Positions 46,210 to 56,239 of a stretch of 64,000 bases of DNA are shown here, one piece after another. This stretch comes from Solirubrobacter deserti. GTDB taxonomy: Bacteria; Actinomycetota; Thermoleophilia; Solirubrobacterales; Solirubrobacteraceae. The first letter of the stretch is position 1. Every line of letters begins with the position of its first letter. The stretch is from contig NZ_JAPCID010000007.1 of the NCBI RefSeq assembly GCF_027587175.1, positions 1 through 64,000 on the forward strand. The letters are read 5' to 3'. The notes beneath the pieces are model-generated. The model saw nothing but the letters and a program-made list of their open reading frames with translations, was not told the DNA's origin and made no database searches. The position numbers and the translations under genes were made by a program.

Positions 46210-47190
46210 GTGACCTACGCCAGCATCGGAGATTCCTTCTCGTCGTTCTTCGACGCCGTCGGCTCGTTCTTCGAGAACTTCGCCGCCGTCCAGTGGATCC
46301 CGCTGTTCCTCGCGCTGGTCTTCTTCACGACCTACCTCACGCTGCGGGCACGCGCGTCGTTCCACATCCTGCGTGCCGCCTATCCCGACGTCAAGATCGA
46401 GTTCAGGCGCGTGTGGGGCGCGTACTTCGCAGGCTACGGCTTCAACTCGGTCATCCCGGCGCGCGGCGGCGACGTGATCCGGCTGTTCCTCACCAGGTCC
46501 TCGGTGCCGACGGCCAGCTACCCGGCGGTCGGCGCCGCGTTCGCGATCGAGTTCATCTTCGACCTCACGATCGCGGTGCCCGTGCTCGCGTACGCGTTCA
46601 GCCAGGGCGTGTTCCCCAAGCCGCCGGACTTCTCCGCGCTGCCGGCCTTCGACCTCGCCTTCTTCGCCTCCAACCCGCGCTTCACGCTGTTCCTGCTGAC
46701 CGTGCTGGGCATCGGCGTGATGGTCGGCTTCGCGCTGCTGTCGGCGCGCGTGCGGCGTTTTTGGGAACGCGTGCGCCAGGGCCTGACGATCGTGTTCGAC
46801 CGCAAGCGCTACTTCCGCGAGGTGTGGCTGGTGCAGTTCGCGGGCTGGCTGTGCCGGTTCGCGGCCTTCTGGTGCCTGCTGGAGGCGTTCAACGTCGGCG
46901 GGTCGGTGAGCAACGTGCTGCTCGTGCTCGGTGTGAACGCGATCGCCGCATTGGTGCCGTTCACGCCCGGCGGCGCGGGCGTGCAGCAGGCGTTGTTGGT
47001 CACGGTCTTCGGCTCGGGCGCGACCGTCGCCGCGTACTCGGTCGGCCAGCAGATCGCGATCGCGGCGCTGACGTTCCTGATCGGGCTGTTCGCCGTCGTG
47101 CGGATCTTCCGCTTCAAGTCCTTCAAGGAGGTCATCGCGGCGGGCCGCTCGCAGCGGGAGGCGGAGAAGGCCGCCGAACCCGCCACGTGA
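46210..47190 (+). CDS. YbhN/UPF0104-type membrane protein (lysylphosphatidylglycerol synthetase TM family)
   Basis: A 326-residue membrane protein with about eight hydrophobic segments, first of three paralogs in the window. Family features are SVIPARGGDVIRLFL near residue 85 and the signature VPFTPGGAGVQQALLV near 260. The family corresponds to the flippase-like part of MprF and to YbhN and AglD2. Probable lipid or polyprenol-linked substrate flippase, unproven here. GTG 46210 is 7 nt after the MFS stop codon. The stop overlaps the GTG of the glycosylase gene (GTGA). Confidence 0.8.
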   Translation: MTYASIGDSFSSFFDAVGSFFENFAAVQWIPLFLALVFFTTYLTLRARASFHILRAAYPDVKIEFRRVWGAYFAGYGFNSVIPARGGDVIRLFLTRSSVPTASYPAVGAAFAIEFIFDLTIAVPVLAYAFSQGVFPKPPDFSALPAFDLAFFASNPRFTLFLLTVLGIGVMVGFALLSARVRRFWERVRQGLTIVFDRKRYFREVWLVQFAGWLCRFAAFWCLLEAFNVGGSVSNVLLVLGVNAIAALVPFTPGGAGVQQALLVTVFGSGATVAAYSVGQQIAIAALTFLIGLFAVVRIFRFKSFKEVIAAGRSQREAEKAAEPAT

Positions 47191-50201: not shown

Positions 50202-51080
50202 CTACGGGAGGCTCGGATTCGTCGCGGTGCCCGGCGTCAAAGTCTTCGTGAACCAGTAGTCGGCGTACGGCTCGGCGTTGAAGGCCTCGACCTCGACATA
50301 GCCGGAGGAGCGGTACAGCGCCTGCGCCTCGGTCAGCGCGCGGTTGGTCTCGAGCCGGATCGCCGTCGCGCCCTCCAGCACCGCGTGGCGCTCGAGCTCG
50401 GCCAGGATGCGCCGGCCGACGCCCAGCCCGCGCGCCTCGGGCGCCACCCACATCCGCTTGATCTCCGGCGGGTCGGCCGTCTTGAGCGCGCCGCAGCCGA
50501 TCGGCTCGCCGCGCAGCCGTGCGACCACGAACACGCCCGAGTCGAACGGCAGCGCGACGTCCTCGCTGAAGCCCGCCTCGAAGCGCTCGTCGATCTCCGC
50601 GAAGTACCGCTGCAGGCACGCGCGCGCCCCGTCGCCGGCTGGGTCCTCGGCCGCCAGCTCGACGATCCCCGACGTCAGGAGGCGCTCGACCGTGCGCATC
50701 GCCTCGACCAGCTGCGTGCGTCCCCGCTCGTTGAGCGGCTCCAGCAGGGAGCGGGCGAGGTCGTCGCTGCGCTCGTCCAGCCGCGCGCGCTCGGCCCGGC
50801 CGGCGGCGGTCAGCGTGATCGTGCGCCGGCGCCGGTCGTCGGCCCCGGCGCGCACGGTCACCAGGCCCTCGGCCTCGAGCGTGCGCAGCAGCCGGCTCAG
50901 GTAGCCCGAGTCCAGGTCCAGCCGCGCGCGCAGCTCGCGCACGTCGGTCACGGCGCCCACCTCCCACAGCACGCGGTTGGCCCCGAGCGGGCGCCCGAGG
51001 TCCAGGTAGGAGTCCATCAGCGCGCCGACGCGTTCAGTCACGGTGCGGTTGAAGGAGCGGACCTGCGCGACCGGTTCCAT
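50202..51080 (-). CDS. MarR-GNAT fusion protein
   Basis: A 292-residue fusion of a MarR winged helix (~1-140: VTERVGALMDSYLDLGRPLG, LDLDSGYLSRLLRTLEAEGLV) and a GNAT acetyltransferase (~150-280: DSGVFVVARLRGEPIGCGAL, RMWVAPEARGLGVGRRILAEL). Such fusions occur widely in bacteria and probably couple acetyl-CoA or substrate binding to repression; targets are unknown. The start ATG 51080 lies 8 nt after a TAAAGT box that sits in the centre of a 16-bp dyad, so the protein most probably represses itself. No close operon partner. Confidence 0.9.
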   Translation of the reverse strand: MEPVAQVRSFNRTVTERVGALMDSYLDLGRPLGANRVLWEVGAVTDVRELRARLDLDSGYLSRLLRTLEAEGLVTVRAGADDRRRRTITLTAAGRAERARLDERSDDLARSLLEPLNERGRTQLVEAMRTVERLLTSGIVELAAEDPAGDGARACLQRYFAEIDERFEAGFSEDVALPFDSGVFVVARLRGEPIGCGALKTADPPEIKRMWVAPEARGLGVGRRILAELERHAVLEGATAIRLETNRALTEAQALYRSSGYVEVEAFNAEPYADYWFTKTLTPGTATNPSLP

Positions 51081-51084
51081 GGTC

Positions 51085-51100
51085 TCTGACTTTAGTCAGA
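51085..51100. promoter_or_regulatory. MarR-type operator centred on own -10 box
   Basis: TCTGAC (51085-51090) and GTCAGA (51095-51100) flank TTTA. The leftward -10 box TAAAGT (51094-51089) lies in the middle; the ATG is 8 nt downstream. Typical autorepression geometry for MarR proteins. Confidence 0.65.
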
Positions 51101-51131
51101 TATCGGTTCGCTGCCAACCTACGCCTTCGGT

Positions 51132-52166
51132 ATGGCGAGAGCGCACGAGGCAGGCATCGATTTCCGCGCCGTCGGCAAGCGCGCGCTGTTCTTCGCCGTG
51201 GTGGCCGTGCTCGCGATCGTGGCGCTCGCCGAGCTGCCCGGGATCGACGAGGTCCGCACCGAGTTCTCGCAGGCCGAGCCGGGCTGGATCGTTGCCGCGG
51301 CCGTGTTCCGGATCGGCTCGATGCTGGGGTTCGTGCGCGCGCTGTGGTCGGCCTTCGACCGCGTCATGCCGTGGCGGCGCGCGCTCGTCCTCGGCCTGGC
51401 CGAGCAGGGCGCGAACGTCCTGCTGCCCGCCGGCGGCGCGGGCGGGCCGGCCTACGGCGCGTACGTGCTGACGCGGCTCGGCGTGCCCGCCGACCTCGCC
51501 GCCCAGCGCCACGCCGCGCTGTTCCTGGTCACCAGCGCGGTGAGCTTCGCGGCGATCATCGTCGCCGGCACGCTGACGGCGATCGGTCTGCTGCCCGGCG
51601 AAGTCGCGCTGATCTGGACGCTCGGCCCGGCCGCGGCGATCGGGGCGCTGTTCGCGCTGGTGGTGCTGTTCGGCCGCAGCGATCCGCCGCAGGAGCCGGA
51701 GAGCGGGCGCGTGCGGCACCTGGTGTGGCGCGTCTGGGGCTTCGTGCGCGACGGGGTGCGCACGTCGCTTCAGCTCGTCCTGCACGGTGACCCGCTGCTG
51801 ATCGTCGGCTCGATCACCTACTTCGCGTTCGACGTCGCGAGCCTCGCCTGCATGTTTCATGCCTTCGGCGGCGGCGCGCCGGACCTCGGCGTGTTCGTCC
51901 TGGCCTACGCGCTCGGCCACGCCGGCGCGCTGATCCCCACGCCCGGCGGCGTCGGCGGCACCGAGGGTGGCCTGATCGGCGCCTTCGTCGCCTACGGCAC
52001 GGCGCTCCCACTGGCCACGGCGGCGGTTGTCGGCTACCGCGTCTTCCAGCTCGGCCTGCCGGCGCTGTTCGGCGCGGCGGCGCTCGTGCGCGTGCAGCAC
52101 GTGCTCGCGCACCCGCCACCGCGGGAGGAGGTCGCGGCGCGCTTCGAAGCGCACCGCTGGCGCTGA
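51132..52166 (+). CDS. YbhN/UPF0104-type membrane protein, second paralog
   Basis: A 344-residue protein with about eight hydrophobic segments (first ~18-35, FFAVVAVLAIVALAELPG). Signatures: NVLLPAGGAGGPAYGAYV near 105 and IPTPGGVGGTEGGLIGAFVA near 275, the latter the family hallmark. Same fold as the proteins at 46210 and 56879, but the three are not closely similar, so they probably diverged long ago and carry different lipids. ATG 51132 is the first start after the divergent MarR-GNAT gene. Function inferred as lipid flippase. Confidence 0.8.
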   Translation: MARAHEAGIDFRAVGKRALFFAVVAVLAIVALAELPGIDEVRTEFSQAEPGWIVAAAVFRIGSMLGFVRALWSAFDRVMPWRRALVLGLAEQGANVLLPAGGAGGPAYGAYVLTRLGVPADLAAQRHAALFLVTSAVSFAAIIVAGTLTAIGLLPGEVALIWTLGPAAAIGALFALVVLFGRSDPPQEPESGRVRHLVWRVWGFVRDGVRTSLQLVLHGDPLLIVGSITYFAFDVASLACMFHAFGGGAPDLGVFVLAYALGHAGALIPTPGGVGGTEGGLIGAFVAYGTALPLATAAVVGYRVFQLGLPALFGAAALVRVQHVLAHPPPREEVAARFEAHRWR

Positions 52167-52253: not shown

Positions 52254-53351
52254 ATGCGCGCACGTATCGCCGCCCTGATGTTGGGCGGGTTGCTCTGCAC
52301 CGCGGTCCCGGCCGAGGCGAGGGACCGGCCGTTGCCGGCCGACGGCGGACCGCGCCAGTTCGACCTCGAGGCCCACCGCGGCGGGCTCGGGCTCACGACC
52401 GAGAGCACGCTGCAGGGCTTCCGCAAGGCGCTGGAGCTCGGGGTCACCACGCTCGAGCTCGACGTCCAGATCACGCAGGACAAGTACGCCGTCGTCACGC
52501 ACGACCGCCGCGTGTCCGCCCAGAAATGCAAGGACACCACGCCGGTCACGGCGGGTGACCCGGAGTTCCCGTATGTGGGCAAGTTCATCAAGGACCTCAC
52601 GCTCGCCCAGGTGTGGACGTTGGACTGCGGCCAGCCGCTCGCCGACTACCCGCTGCAGGAGGTCATCCGCGGCGTCAAGATGCCGCTGCTGCGGCAGGTG
52701 TTCGCGCTCACCGAGTGCATGCGCGGCGACCGCACGTGGATGAACATCGAGACCAAGGTCGAGGCCGGCGCGCCGCACGAGACCGCGCCGCGCGAGGAGT
52801 TCGTCCAGATCACGGCGCAGGAGATCCGCCGCGCGCGCGTCCAGGACCGCGTCACGATCCAGAGCTTCGACTGGGGCAGCCTGATGCGCTGGCGGCAGGT
52901 GATGCCGCGCCTGCCGATCGTCGCGCTCACCAACGGCGACTTCCTGCAGGTCGGCCAGCCGGGCGCGTCGCCGTGGCTGGGCGGGATCGACGTCGACGAC
53001 TTCGGCGGCTCCTACGTGCGCGCCGCGCACTCCTTCGGCGCCGACGCGCTCTCGCCCGTGCACGGCAACCCGCAGAACGGCAAGGTCGGCGACCCGAACT
53101 ACGTGCCGTACACGACGCCGGCGCTGGTGCGCGAGGCGCACCGCGTCGGCCTGCCCGTCGTGCCGTGGACGGTCGACGATCCCGCGACGATGGCGTCGCT
53201 GATGGACGCCGGTGTCGACGGGATCATCACCAACTATCCGGACCGGCTGCGCGCCGTGATGGCGCAGCGCGGCTACAAGCTCCCGCGCGGGGAGCGTGAG
53301 CCGCGCCACACCGACTGCGTCGGCTACGCGATGTCGGCCGCCAAGCCGTGA
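52254..53351 (+). CDS. Secreted glycerophosphodiester phosphodiesterase
   Basis: A 365-residue exported GDPD-family enzyme. Signal peptide MRARIAALMLGGLLCTAVPA. Catalytic features: the first His-Arg in LEAHRGGLGLTTESTLQGF, ELDVQITQDKYAVVTHDRRV (metal ligands Glu-x-Asp and the second His), and NIETKVE. The C-terminal PVVPWTVDDPATMASLMDAG and DGIITNYPDRLRAVM match the family. Likely hydrolyses glycerophosphodiesters or teichoic-type polymers outside the cell. A strong GGAGGA Shine-Dalgarno precedes ATG 52254 and a TAGCGT box is about 50 nt upstream. Confidence 0.92.
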   Translation: MRARIAALMLGGLLCTAVPAEARDRPLPADGGPRQFDLEAHRGGLGLTTESTLQGFRKALELGVTTLELDVQITQDKYAVVTHDRRVSAQKCKDTTPVTAGDPEFPYVGKFIKDLTLAQVWTLDCGQPLADYPLQEVIRGVKMPLLRQVFALTECMRGDRTWMNIETKVEAGAPHETAPREEFVQITAQEIRRARVQDRVTIQSFDWGSLMRWRQVMPRLPIVALTNGDFLQVGQPGASPWLGGIDVDDFGGSYVRAAHSFGADALSPVHGNPQNGKVGDPNYVPYTTPALVREAHRVGLPVVPWTVDDPATMASLMDAGVDGIITNYPDRLRAVMAQRGYKLPRGEREPRHTDCVGYAMSAAKP

Positions 53352-53357
53352 GCTGAC

Positions 53358-54500
53358 TCAGGCACCGGGCCGGAGCAGTCCGGCCCGGCGCTGCCGCTCC
53401 ACCCACGCCTTCAGCGAGGTGAAGGAGGCGTCCGGCGAGCCGTCGGGGCGCAGCAGCCCGGTGTTCCACTGCACCTCGGGGTTCTGCAGCAGCCCGAAGT
53501 AGAGGAGCTCGGAGACCTTCGGGTTCTTGCGCGCGAGCTCGAAGGCCTGCGTGATGTAGCGGGCGCGGGTCGAGCGCGGGAACGCGAGCGAGCCGGACGC
53601 GAAGTAGGCGAACTCGGTCAGGTGCACGGCGGGCTCGCGGCCCTTGGAGGTCGACAGCGCCTTGGCCCGGCGCAGGCGCGTGAGCGCGTTCGTGAGCCGG
53701 CTGACGGTGCCGATCGTGACGTCGTCGGCCGGGATCTTCTTGTACGTGGGCGAGTGCCGGTAGTCGTACGGGTGCAGCGAGACGGCGTCCGCGCGCACGG
53801 TCCCGCAGCCCGAGCGCTTGCGCCAGCGGGTGTCGACGCACAGCACGTCGCGCATGAACCGCAGCGGCGCGTACGCCGCCCCCGGTCGGGCCTGCGGGGC
53901 GAGCTCGCCGAACGAGACCTGCGCGCGCGAGTCGGCGCGCTTGATCGCCGAGTAGGCGCCGCGGTACAGCGCCCGGTACTGCTTGGCGGCCGTCCGCGCC
54001 GGGCTCAGCCACGAGTGCCAGTTCGGCTCGTTCCAGATGCTGTAGCGCTCGACGTCACCGCGGTAGCGCTGCGCGACGAAGGAGGCAAAGCGCGCGTACT
54101 CCTTCGCCGACGGCCCGCGCGTGGACGGCCCGCGGCGGTCCGCCGTCGCCCAACGCGGCGCCGGACCGGTGAGCGTGAACTCCAGCCGCATGTCGTGCTG
54201 CTTGGCCAGCGCGACCAGGAAGTCGAAGTCGCCGAGCTCGTAGCGCACGCGCGAAGGCTTGGAGCGCTGGTTGGCCTGGCCGCTGGCGAGCACGCGCGAC
54301 CAGATCATGTTCGCGCGGAGCTTGGTCACGCCGAGCTCCTTGGCGCGCACCATCGCCGCCTCGCGGGTGAAGGTGGCGCTGCTGTCGCCGAGGAAGACGA
54401 AGTCGTCCTGCAGGCCGATGTCCATCGTGCGCGAGGCGTGCGCGGGCGCGCACAGCGCGAAGAACGCGATGAGGAGGCTAATCGAGCGCTTGAAGTTCAT
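53358..54500 (-). CDS. Secreted glycoside-hydrolase-like protein, paralog of 17059-18447
   Basis: A 380-residue exported protein with signal peptide MNFKRSISLLIAFFALCAPA. WNEPN places the probable acid/base Glu at residue 158 and LTEFAYF the nucleophile Glu at residue 296. TGPAPRWAT and the Glu spacing mirror the paralog at 17059 (Glu160/Glu300). It lacks the C-terminal beta domain of that paralog. The start overlaps the stop of the SGNH lipoprotein gene by 23 bp, so it is part of the leftward exported-protein operon. Target glycan unknown. Confidence 0.82.
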   Translation of the reverse strand: MNFKRSISLLIAFFALCAPAHASRTMDIGLQDDFVFLGDSSATFTREAAMVRAKELGVTKLRANMIWSRVLASGQANQRSKPSRVRYELGDFDFLVALAKQHDMRLEFTLTGPAPRWATADRRGPSTRGPSAKEYARFASFVAQRYRGDVERYSIWNEPNWHSWLSPARTAAKQYRALYRGAYSAIKRADSRAQVSFGELAPQARPGAAYAPLRFMRDVLCVDTRWRKRSGCGTVRADAVSLHPYDYRHSPTYKKIPADDVTIGTVSRLTNALTRLRRAKALSTSKGREPAVHLTEFAYFASGSLAFPRSTRARYITQAFELARKNPKVSELLYFGLLQNPEVQWNTGLLRPDGSPDASFTSLKAWVERQRRAGLLRPGA

Positions 54501-55338
54501 CTGTGAGGAAGGGTCCCAGGGTCGCGGCGAACGTCGGGGTGACGTGCGTGAGGTCGTGATAGGCAAGAACACCGCCGATGACAGGAAAGCACCGGTGCTG
54601 GTCGCAGAAGTAACGGCTCAGGTCGATCACGGGCGCTTGGCGCTGCCCGGCCGCGGCCACCGCCGGGTCGGGCGCCAGGGCGGTGTCGCGGGGGACGGCG
54701 CAGCTCGACCCCGGCTTCTCCGTGGCGGCGTTCACGCACGCCAGCGTGTCCTCGCGCAACTCGGGCGTGTCGCGGAGCACGACGAGCTTCACCGTGGGCG
54801 GGAGGCGGTCCCAGGCGGCGAGCCAGTTCGCCGGGTCCTGCGAGGCGGCGTTGCGGGGCAAGCCGATGATGAACACGGTCCTGACCTCGGGGTGGGCTGC
54901 GAGCCACTGCGGCACCTGCTGCTTCCAGGTCGCGCATTCCGAGAACGCCGGCTCCGGCAGCGGGCGGCCGTCTGCGACGAACGGACAGCCGTTGCGGGTG
55001 ATCGCGTAGCCGCGCCGGCCGAGCCGCTCGGCCGCGACCGCGAACGCCGAGCGCAGCGCGTTCGCGTGGCTGTCACCGACCAGCGCGAACGTCTCGTCCC
55101 CGCGGCCGAAGGCGCACGGCTCGACCAGGCCGAGCGGCTGCGCGCGCTCGCACGGCGCGCCGCGGGCGCCGCTGCGCTCGACGGTGTCGGGCTCGGGGCA
55201 GCCGTTGGCGAGCGCCGCGGCGCCGGCGCAGCCCTCGGCGGTCGGGGCCGGGGTCGCGCGCGGCGGCGCGGGCTGCTCACCGCAGCCGGCGAACGCGAGC
55301 GCGAGCGCCACCACGCTAAGCGAAGCCGACGACCGCAC
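54478..55338 (-). CDS. SGNH-domain lipoprotein
   Basis: A 286-residue exported protein whose GTG 55338 start gives signal peptide VRSSASLSVVALALAFAGC with lipobox FAGC. The mature part is an SGNH-like hydrolase as found C-terminal to OafA/YrhL acyltransferases: FALVGDSHANALR (block I), RNGCPF, WKQQVPQWLAAHPEVRTVF and the C-terminal YHDLTHVT with the catalytic Asp/His pair. Four conserved cysteine pairs are shared with the next gene. Without an acyltransferase membrane domain it probably trims or transfers acyl groups on surface polysaccharide. The 5' part overlaps the SGNH gene upstream by 23 bp. Confidence 0.78.
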   Translation of the reverse strand: MRSSASLSVVALALAFAGCGEQPAPPRATPAPTAEGCAGAAALANGCPEPDTVERSGARGAPCERAQPLGLVEPCAFGRGDETFALVGDSHANALRSAFAVAAERLGRRGYAITRNGCPFVADGRPLPEPAFSECATWKQQVPQWLAAHPEVRTVFIIGLPRNAASQDPANWLAAWDRLPPTVKLVVLRDTPELREDTLACVNAATEKPGSSCAVPRDTALAPDPAVAAAGQRQAPVIDLSRYFCDQHRCFPVIGGVLAYHDLTHVTPTFAATLGPFLTDELQALD

Positions 55339-56239
55339 GCAGCAGGAACGGCCCGAGCGTCTCCGCGAAGTGCCGCGTGAGGTGGTTGAGATCCTTGTGT
55401 ACCAGGACGCCACCCACGACCGGATAGCAGTTGCGCTCATCGCAGAAGTGCGGGGTGAGGTCCACGAGCCGGAACCGCGACGGGTCCGCCTGCGTGATCG
55501 CGACCTCGACGGGGTCCGGCGGCAGCGCCGTCGCGCGCGGGATCGCGCAGTGGGTGCCGGGCGTGCGGCGGCGGTTGAGCGCCCGCTGCACGCAGCGCAT
55601 CGTGCTCACCTGCGCGGACGGGTTGTCGCGGATCACGAACACGCGCGTGACGGACGCCGGCAGCCACGACCAGGCCCGCACGTGCCCGGCGACCTGCGCC
55701 TCGAACGCCGGCATCGGCCCCGGCGCGTAGTCCCGCGGGCCGGGCGTCTTGGTCGCCAGGAAGACCGTCGTGACCTCGGGGTGCCGGTCCAGCCACTCCA
55801 CGACCTGCTGCTTCCACGCCGCGCACTCGGAGAAGAACGGCTCGGGCTGCGCGAGCGGCACCGTCGTCAGCGAGCAGCTGTTGCGCGAGAGCTGGTAGCC
55901 GTGCCACTGCAGCCCGCGTGCGAGTTCCGCGAGCGTCGGGCGCCAGTGCGCGGCGTGGCTGTCGCCGAACAGCGCGAAGTGGGCGCGGGCGTTCGGGCTC
56001 AGCACGCCGAACTCGCACGGCACGACGAGCCCCTCCGGCACGAGCTTGGTGCACGGCGCGCCGCGCACGAGCGGCGCGTTGCGCGGGTGCGGGGTGACCT
56101 TCAGGCGCAGCGACGGGTTCACGCACGGCAGCATCGGGTCGCGCGCCGCGGCGCCGAAGCAGCTCGGCGCCGCGCCCGCCGGCGGGGTGAACGCGGCCAG
56201 CACCGCAAGCGCCGCGAGCGCGACGACCCAGACCTTCAT
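55316..56239 (-). CDS. Secreted SGNH-domain protein, tandem paralog
   Basis: A 307-residue exported protein with signal peptide MKVWVVALAALAVLAAF, cleaved near PAGAAP. Same SGNH layout as the gene downstream: FALFGDSHAAHWR, SRNSCSLTT, CAAWKQQVVEWLDRHPEVTT, CAIPRATALPPDPV, and HKDLNHLTRHFAETLGPFL with Asp/His. It is a tandem duplicate, soluble rather than lipid-anchored. ATG 56239 overlaps the stop of the ankyrin-like fragment upstream (ATGA). The substrate is presumably acylated surface glycan. Confidence 0.78.
   Translation of the reverse strand: MKVWVVALAALAVLAAFTPPAGAAPSCFGAAARDPMLPCVNPSLRLKVTPHPRNAPLVRGAPCTKLVPEGLVVPCEFGVLSPNARAHFALFGDSHAAHWRPTLAELARGLQWHGYQLSRNSCSLTTVPLAQPEPFFSECAAWKQQVVEWLDRHPEVTTVFLATKTPGPRDYAPGPMPAFEAQVAGHVRAWSWLPASVTRVFVIRDNPSAQVSTMRCVQRALNRRRTPGTHCAIPRATALPPDPVEVAITQADPSRFRLVDLTPHFCDERNCYPVVGGVLVHKDLNHLTRHFAETLGPFLLRAVVGFA

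What the first reader, a model, noticed from the sequence alone, without database searches (positions are those of the whole stretch)
51080..51132. MarR-GNAT fusion with operator centred on its own -10 box
The dyad TCTGAC-TTTA-GTCAGA has the leaderless -10 box TAAAGT in its middle. A MarR dimer bound here would fully block its promoter. The GNAT half suggests the enzyme product or acetyl-CoA level feeds back on repression, a one-protein enzyme-sensor.
Basis: partly seen in the sequence, partly recalled or inferred. Interest (0 to 1): 0.5.

Follow-up and report, generated by a model that had tools for sequence, protein, structure and literature searches.

The report
Self-controlling enzyme with its own operator
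A soil bacterium carries a DNA-binding regulator fused to an acetyl-transferring enzyme, and the short mirror-image DNA site on its own promoter recurs beside the same gene in distant relatives, so the enzyme very probably controls its own production.

Summary
TCTGACTTTAGTCAGA (51085-51100) lies 4 bp before the start of a MarR-GNAT fusion gene (50202-51080, minus strand) and encloses the -10 box TAAAGT, with TTGGCA 17 bp upstream.

The dyad looks like a real operator. It stands at the gene start in 39 of 41 non-redundant actinobacterial orthologues (at least 11 of 14 positions); 20 of 9,000 shuffled windows do as well. Exact copies occur in 11 of 201 genomes of the order and 3 of 396 of the phylum, once each, always beside this gene.

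Arms and -10 box separate: position 8 is A (needed for TANNNT) in 28 of 29 standard-geometry loci, its dyad mate T in only 2. A paralogous clade, also in this genome, carries TTGACNNNGTCAA (12 of 12).

Best reading: near single-target autorepression at a leaderless promoter. Binding was not tested. Feedback by enzyme product or acetyl-CoA is plausible but untested.

The parts
50202..51080 (-). MarR-GNAT fusion gene, 292 aa; MarR half about residues 1-137, GNAT half about 138-285
   Evidence: ORF; Pfam MarR_2/MarR and Acetyltransf_1 above gathering cut-offs; AlphaFold2 model, mean pLDDT 84.7, winged-helix order of elements then GNAT; GNAT half matches solved GNATs at Z up to 19.6
51085..51100 (.). 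operator-like dyad TCTGAC-TTTA-GTCAGA (consensus in relatives TCTGACTNNAGTCAGA)
   Evidence: at least 11 of 14 positions in 39 of 41 orthologues
51089..51094 (-). -10 box TAAAGT inside the dyad
   Evidence: TANNNT at this place in 28 of 29 loci with a start 2-5 nt after the dyad
51112..51117 (-). -35 box TTGGCA, 17 bp from the -10 box
   Evidence: inside a block invariant in four Solirubrobacter genomes; -35 boxes of 5/6 or better at 16-19 bp in 11 of 39 orthologues against 0.8% in shuffles
51078..51080 (-). start codon ATG of the fusion gene, 4 nt after the dyad, 8 nt after the -10 box
51132..52166 (+). divergent flippase-like membrane protein gene (LPG_synthase_TM), possible second target in Solirubrobacter
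   Evidence: Pfam PF03706, 76.4 bits; found beside the fusion gene in four non-redundant loci, L001, L015, L016, L017, and in no other of the 41

Best explanation
The MarR half dimerises and binds TCTGACTNNAGTCAGA, which covers the -10 box and start region of the gene's own leaderless promoter, so RNA polymerase is kept off and the fusion protein represses its own synthesis. The enzyme it limits is on the same chain, so the gene is a self-contained unit with essentially one site in the genome: when the GNAT half or the MarR pocket meets its substrate, product or CoA ligand, the dimer lets go and more enzyme is made. Shown here: fusion, dyad, promoter-like boxes, conservation, one exact site per genome, paralogue with its own site. 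Inferred: dimer, binding by this protein, repression. Least certain: what relieves it. The confidence given is for self-binding and autorepression; for relief by a ligand of the enzyme half I would give about 0.35.
For: Dyad with at least 11/14 matches at the gene start in 39 of 41 non-redundant orthologues of >=42% identity, 36 with at least 12 and 15 with 14; 20 of 9,000 mononucleotide shuffles of 96-nt windows reach 11 or more. Exact dyad in 11 of 201 order genomes and 3 of 396 phylum genomes, one site each, all directly upstream of the fusion gene (coordinates with 55, and 18 with 19); reversed-pattern controls hit 0 of 201 and 1 of 396. The arms persist where TANNNT is not in the dyad (L051, L052, L054, L056, L057, L060), so they are kept for something other than the -10 box. 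The paralogous clade (12 of 12 rows with an intact N terminus) carries TTGACNNNGTCAA, twice and 21 bp apart in 7 of them, and that clade is 100/100 supported. Outside Solirubrobacter no neighbouring gene is shared by more than two of the 41 loci. Acetyl-CoA loop intact.
Against: No binding, transcript-start or expression data. Two of 41 orthologues lack the dyad: L046 (10/14, with a GGAGG before its ATG) and L061 (7/14). Only 11 of the 20 order genomes and 3 of the 19 phylum genomes with a protein match have the exact 14-letter form; the others have variants. In L030, L056, L057, L060 and L063 the promoter position is not clear, and L030 is from the same genus. Weaker or further sites are not excluded: other genomes were scanned for exact matches only, the own one for up to 2 mismatches. 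In Solirubrobacter the site may also control the divergent flippase-like gene.
Confidence: 0.8

Rival explanations
1. The dyad is the binding site of another regulator encoded elsewhere, and the MarR half of the fusion acts on other genes or has lost DNA binding.
For: No binding was measured; a promoter can carry sites of foreign regulators.
Against: The exact site occurs once per genome and only beside this gene, neighbours change while it stays, and the paralogous clade has a related but different site. The recognition helix (LDSGYLSRLLR in this protein) is well conserved.
Confidence: 0.08
2. The operator serves mainly to control the divergent flippase-like gene (51132-52166), the fusion being an ordinary neighbour-regulating MarR protein.
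For: In four Solirubrobacter loci the two genes are divergent across 48-51 bp, with the dyad and the AGGTTGGCAGCG block conserved between them.
Against: The flippase-like gene was not found (tblastn, E <= 1e-6) in the fetched DNA of the other 37 of the 41 loci, of which 35 keep the dyad, 25 in the standard geometry.
Confidence: 0.07
3. The feedback works by self-acetylation of lysines in the DNA-binding half.
For: GNAT enzymes can acetylate proteins (recalled), and the MarR half sits on the same chain.
Against: Residues 1-137 hold no lysine in the window's protein and in 25 of 39 aligned sequences, itself included. N-terminal or other acetylation is not excluded.
Confidence: 0.03
4. The dyad acts as an RNA hairpin or terminator.
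For: It is an inverted repeat between two genes.
Against: With the -10 box inside it, it lies upstream of the inferred transcript; no terminator-like site was found in 50900-51300.
Confidence: 0.02

Closest known systems
MarR-family autorepressors such as CrtR of Corynebacterium glutamicum (PMC5401885)
   Same: Actinobacterial MarR protein that represses its own gene, whose transcript is reported leaderless, with possibly one site in the genome (passages of the paper seen)
   Different: The site shown for CrtR lies over the -10/-35 of the adjacent carotenoid operon, which it also represses, and its own promoter motifs were not clear; no enzyme domain is mentioned in the passages seen. Here the enzyme is part of the predicted repressor and no target gene is widely conserved beside it
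Trigger enzymes (BirA, NadR, PepA, PutA, PyrH; listed in PMC8249747)
   Same: An enzyme that is also a DNA-binding regulator (passages seen)
   Different: Those named regulate pathway genes or operons (recalled for most); here the only conserved site found is on the protein's own promoter. Regulation is inferred, not shown
Annotation class 'bifunctional helix-turn-helix transcriptional regulator/GNAT family N-acetyltransferase' (full name recalled)
   Same: The same domain order; both halves of the name occur in one held paper, PMC13295564, of which only the search listing was seen
   Different: A name, not a studied system: seven literature searches aimed at the fusion listed no study of its operator or regulation; only listings were seen, some of them capped

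Membership tests
MarR family | winged-helix MarR domain above the curated cut-off | tested here: met
   PF12802 31.7 bits (cut-off 27), PF01047 28.2 (24.6); MarR_2 matched in 12 of 12 members of A2
MarR family | palindromic site of 16-20 bp over promoter elements | tested here: met
   16-bp dyad over the -10 box; rule as quoted in a passage of PMC5401885; that the protein binds it was not tested
MarR family | dimer that binds the site and is released by a ligand | not testable with these tools
   no binding data; one monomer model only
GNAT acetyltransferases | GNAT fold | tested here: met
   PF00583 57.9 bits (cut-off 20.7); Z 19.6, rmsd 1.8 over 142 residues to 3d8p_B and Z 19.6, rmsd 1.8 over 135 to 3lod
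GNAT acetyltransferases | acetyl-CoA pyrophosphate loop R/Q-x-x-G-x-G/A (motif recalled) | tested here: met
   RGLGVG at 217-222; R217 and G220 invariant in 39 sequences
GNAT acetyltransferases | acetyl transfer | not testable with these tools
   substrate unknown
Trigger enzymes | DNA binding controlled by the enzyme's substrate or product | not testable with these tools
   no experiment available
Leaderless promoter | TANNNT about 6-8 nt before the start codon (spacing recalled; TANNNT consensus in a passage of PMC5401885) | tested here: met
   TAAAGT 8 nt before ATG; TANNNT in 28 of 29 standard-geometry loci; transcription start not mapped

The most novel reading that the evidence does not exclude
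A phylum-wide family of orphan enzymes whose only gene target is their own promoter: the acetyltransferase reaction itself, by substrate, product or CoA state, opens and closes the repressor, making the gene a complete one-protein homeostat that can move between genomes with its switch attached.
Probability: 0.35. Interest if true: 0.68.

Novelty: new variant of a known kind. Interest (0 to 1): 0.5.

Why it matters
It turns an annotated but, as far as the searches made here show, unstudied fusion into a testable unit: a likely promoter, a defined operator, one predicted main target and an intact enzyme loop. Because the target is the enzyme itself, ligands that release the repressor should point to the unknown substrate. 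Two sister clades with different sites in one genome also give a natural test of how MarR dimers set half-site spacing.

Tried and rejected
RNA hairpin or terminator reading: no terminator-like site found, and the dyad lies upstream of the inferred transcript. Lysine self-acetylation: no lysine in the MarR half. Neighbour-targeted regulator: neighbours not conserved beyond the genus in more than two loci. Studied MarR-GNAT operator: seven searches aimed at the fusion listed none; one search listed 20 of 39 papers, 7 of 8, 10 of 13, and only listings were seen. Three further searches were on MexR (no paper), trigger enzymes and leaderless MarR genes (8 of 12 listed). Most subscription papers are not held. 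Sequence search of solved structures gave separate MarR and GNAT proteins only at E <= 0.001, 8 distinct sequences; the fold lists shown are filled by the GNAT half, so nothing follows from them about full-length relatives or the MarR half. Promoter of the divergent flippase-like gene: no clear -10 box found by eye, left open.

Limits of the counts. Rows dropped before the 45: 7 duplicates of the same locus or species (L012, L014, L033, L034, L035, L064, L065) and loci whose tblastn match begins after query residue 20 or does not reach E 1e-15 (among them L003, L004, L031, L032). The 41 are the 45 less four rows of the other operator clade (L002, L041, L043, L044). In one search, L076-L081 (6 rows) show no site, but their matches do not cover the N-terminal part, so they were not counted; L066 and L067 repeat L002. 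The 29 'standard geometry' rows were listed by hand. The shuffles keep only base composition and used windows centred on the best match. The cluster list was cut at the 15 largest (ORFs of at least 90 aa, blastp E <= 1e-12, flanks up to 1.5 kb), so further two-locus clusters may exist. Related sequences were not down-weighted in the Fisher test.

Full report
What is there. The window belongs to a Solirubrobacter genome: the search for related loci gives a 100% identical locus in Solirubrobacter sp. CPCC 204708; the own assembly has 7,085,520 bases in 129 contigs. The ORF 50202-51080 (minus, 292 aa) is a MarR-GNAT fusion by Pfam. The AlphaFold2 model (mean pLDDT 84.7, pTM 0.71, 12 sequences) shows helices 3-18, 32-40, 47-54, 58-70, a wing 74-78/86-90, helices 92-113 and 118-137, then a GNAT domain, which matches solved GNAT structures (Z 19.6, rmsd 1.8 over 142 residues to 3d8p_B). 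The acetyl-CoA loop RGLGVG is intact.

The dyad. TCTGACTTTAGTCAGA at 51085-51100 surrounds TAAAGT on the minus strand, with TTGGCA 17 bp upstream, 8 nt before the ATG. In the own genome it is the only site at up to 1 mismatch.

Conservation. Relatives came from protein searches in 201 genomes of the order (20 with a match at E <= 1e-30, two of them to the GNAT part only) and 396 of the phylum (19 at E <= 1e-40), and from the genome collection (13 loci). After dropping duplicates and partial matches 45 loci remained, 41 of them with at least 42% identity. Of these 41, 39 have the dyad with at least 11 of 14 matches, 36 at least 12, 15 all 14. Positions 3, 4, 5, 12, 13 and 14 are invariant in the 39. 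Mononucleotide shuffles of the 96-nt windows reach 11 or more in 20 of 9,000. The two misses are L046 and L061. In several relatives the palindrome extends to ATTCTCTGAC...GTCAGAGAAT and its right end runs into the ATG (L018, L040, L049).

One site per genome. The exact pattern was found in 11 of 201 genomes of the order and 3 of 396 of the phylum (the own genome is in both sets, and the sets share others). Each has it once, and comparison with the gene coordinates puts every one directly upstream of the fusion gene. Reversed-pattern controls hit 0 of 201 and 1 of 396 genomes. The remaining genomes with the gene carry variants that this exact scan does not see; weaker sites elsewhere were not scanned in other genomes.

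Operator and promoter separated. In the 29 loci with a start codon 2-5 nt after the dyad, T7-A8...T12 (TANNNT) is present in 28; in the 10 others in 2 (Fisher p = 6e-6, relatedness not corrected for). Within the 29, A8 occurs in 28 but its dyad partner is T in only 2: a purely symmetric operator would not do this, so A8 is best explained by the -10 box. Conversely, L051, L052, L054, L056, L057, L060 and L063 lack T7-A8 but keep most of the arms. In the clade L051-L054 (100/100) a -10-like box lies just before the dyad (TATTAT in L051, TAATAT in L054; L052 and L053 by eye) and an in-frame ATG or GTG lies in the dyad centre (L052 and L053; L051 and L054 by eye); the spacing box, about 6 nt, start is that of the other loci. 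With the -10 placed in the dyad and a spacer of 16-19 bp, -35 boxes with 5 or 6 of 6 matches occur in 11 of 39 loci, against 0.8% of shuffles.

The paralogue. The own genome carries a second MarR-GNAT gene (L002, 36% identity). Its clade (12 rows with an intact N terminus, including two Pseudomonadota and one Myxococcota by the tree labels) has TTGACNNNGTCAA with 9 or 10 of 10 matches in 12 of 12, as two copies 21 bp apart in 7. By eye, in the Solirubrobacter members the left arm of the upstream copy reads as a -35 box (TTGACA or TTGACT) and the centre of the downstream copy as a -10-like GACNNT (GATCCT in L069), 17 bp apart and 7 nt before the ATG. Operator type follows the protein tree: the clade has 100/100 support. 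In the own genome this less specific pattern occurs at 5 places, two of them this promoter.

Targets. Among ORFs in the flanks (up to 1.5 kb) of the 41 loci, clusters of three or four loci are all from Solirubrobacter; the others printed (15 largest) join two loci only. The flippase-like gene is divergent in four Solirubrobacter loci and was not found in the other 37; the fifth genome of the genus in the order set (G196, L030, 51% identity) lacks it too. In the four, the dyad block and the AGGTTGGCAGCG block are the conserved parts of the gap.

Mechanism. The simplest account is negative autoregulation by steric block at a leaderless promoter. [quoted passage not shown] CrtR there binds over the -10/-35 of the crt operon and represses its own gene, whose transcript is reported leaderless. 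The fused enzyme suggests feedback in the manner of trigger enzymes (passage of PMC8249747), but the signal is unknown. Lysine self-acetylation of the DNA-binding half is not possible in this protein, which has no lysine in residues 1-137.

Novelty. Seven literature searches aimed at the fusion listed no study of a MarR-GNAT operator; only listings were seen, some capped, and most subscription papers are not held, so this is no proof of novelty. Autorepression by MarR proteins and enzymes that regulate genes are both known; what is new, if it holds, is their union in an orphan gene with its own conserved site as the only target found.

Noticed in passing
L002:1513-2397 (own genome C59): A second MarR-GNAT gene with two TTGACNNNGTCAA sites 21 bp apart on its promoter; an arm appears to serve as -35 box, and the pattern recurs in two Pseudomonadota and one Myxococcota relative.
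   Followed up: partly
L051-L054, about 20 bp around the start: In one clade the dyad is centred on the start codon and a -10-like box stands in front of it, keeping the leaderless spacing.
   Followed up: partly
46210-47190 and 51132-52166: Two flippase-like genes (LPG_synthase_TM) in one window; the second is followed by a glycerophosphodiester phosphodiesterase gene at 52254-53351.
   Followed up: no
54478-55440 and 55316-56239: Two neighbouring minus-strand ORFs with similar stretches by eye (GDSHA; HDLTH/KDLNH), possibly a tandem pair of esterase-like genes.
   Followed up: no
L028 (G121), after the dyad: Where most relatives have ATG after the dyad it reads ATC, in frame; either a rare start codon or a start further downstream.
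   Followed up: no
L046: An orthologue without the dyad has GGAGG before its ATG instead, so it may have left the leaderless arrangement.
   Followed up: no
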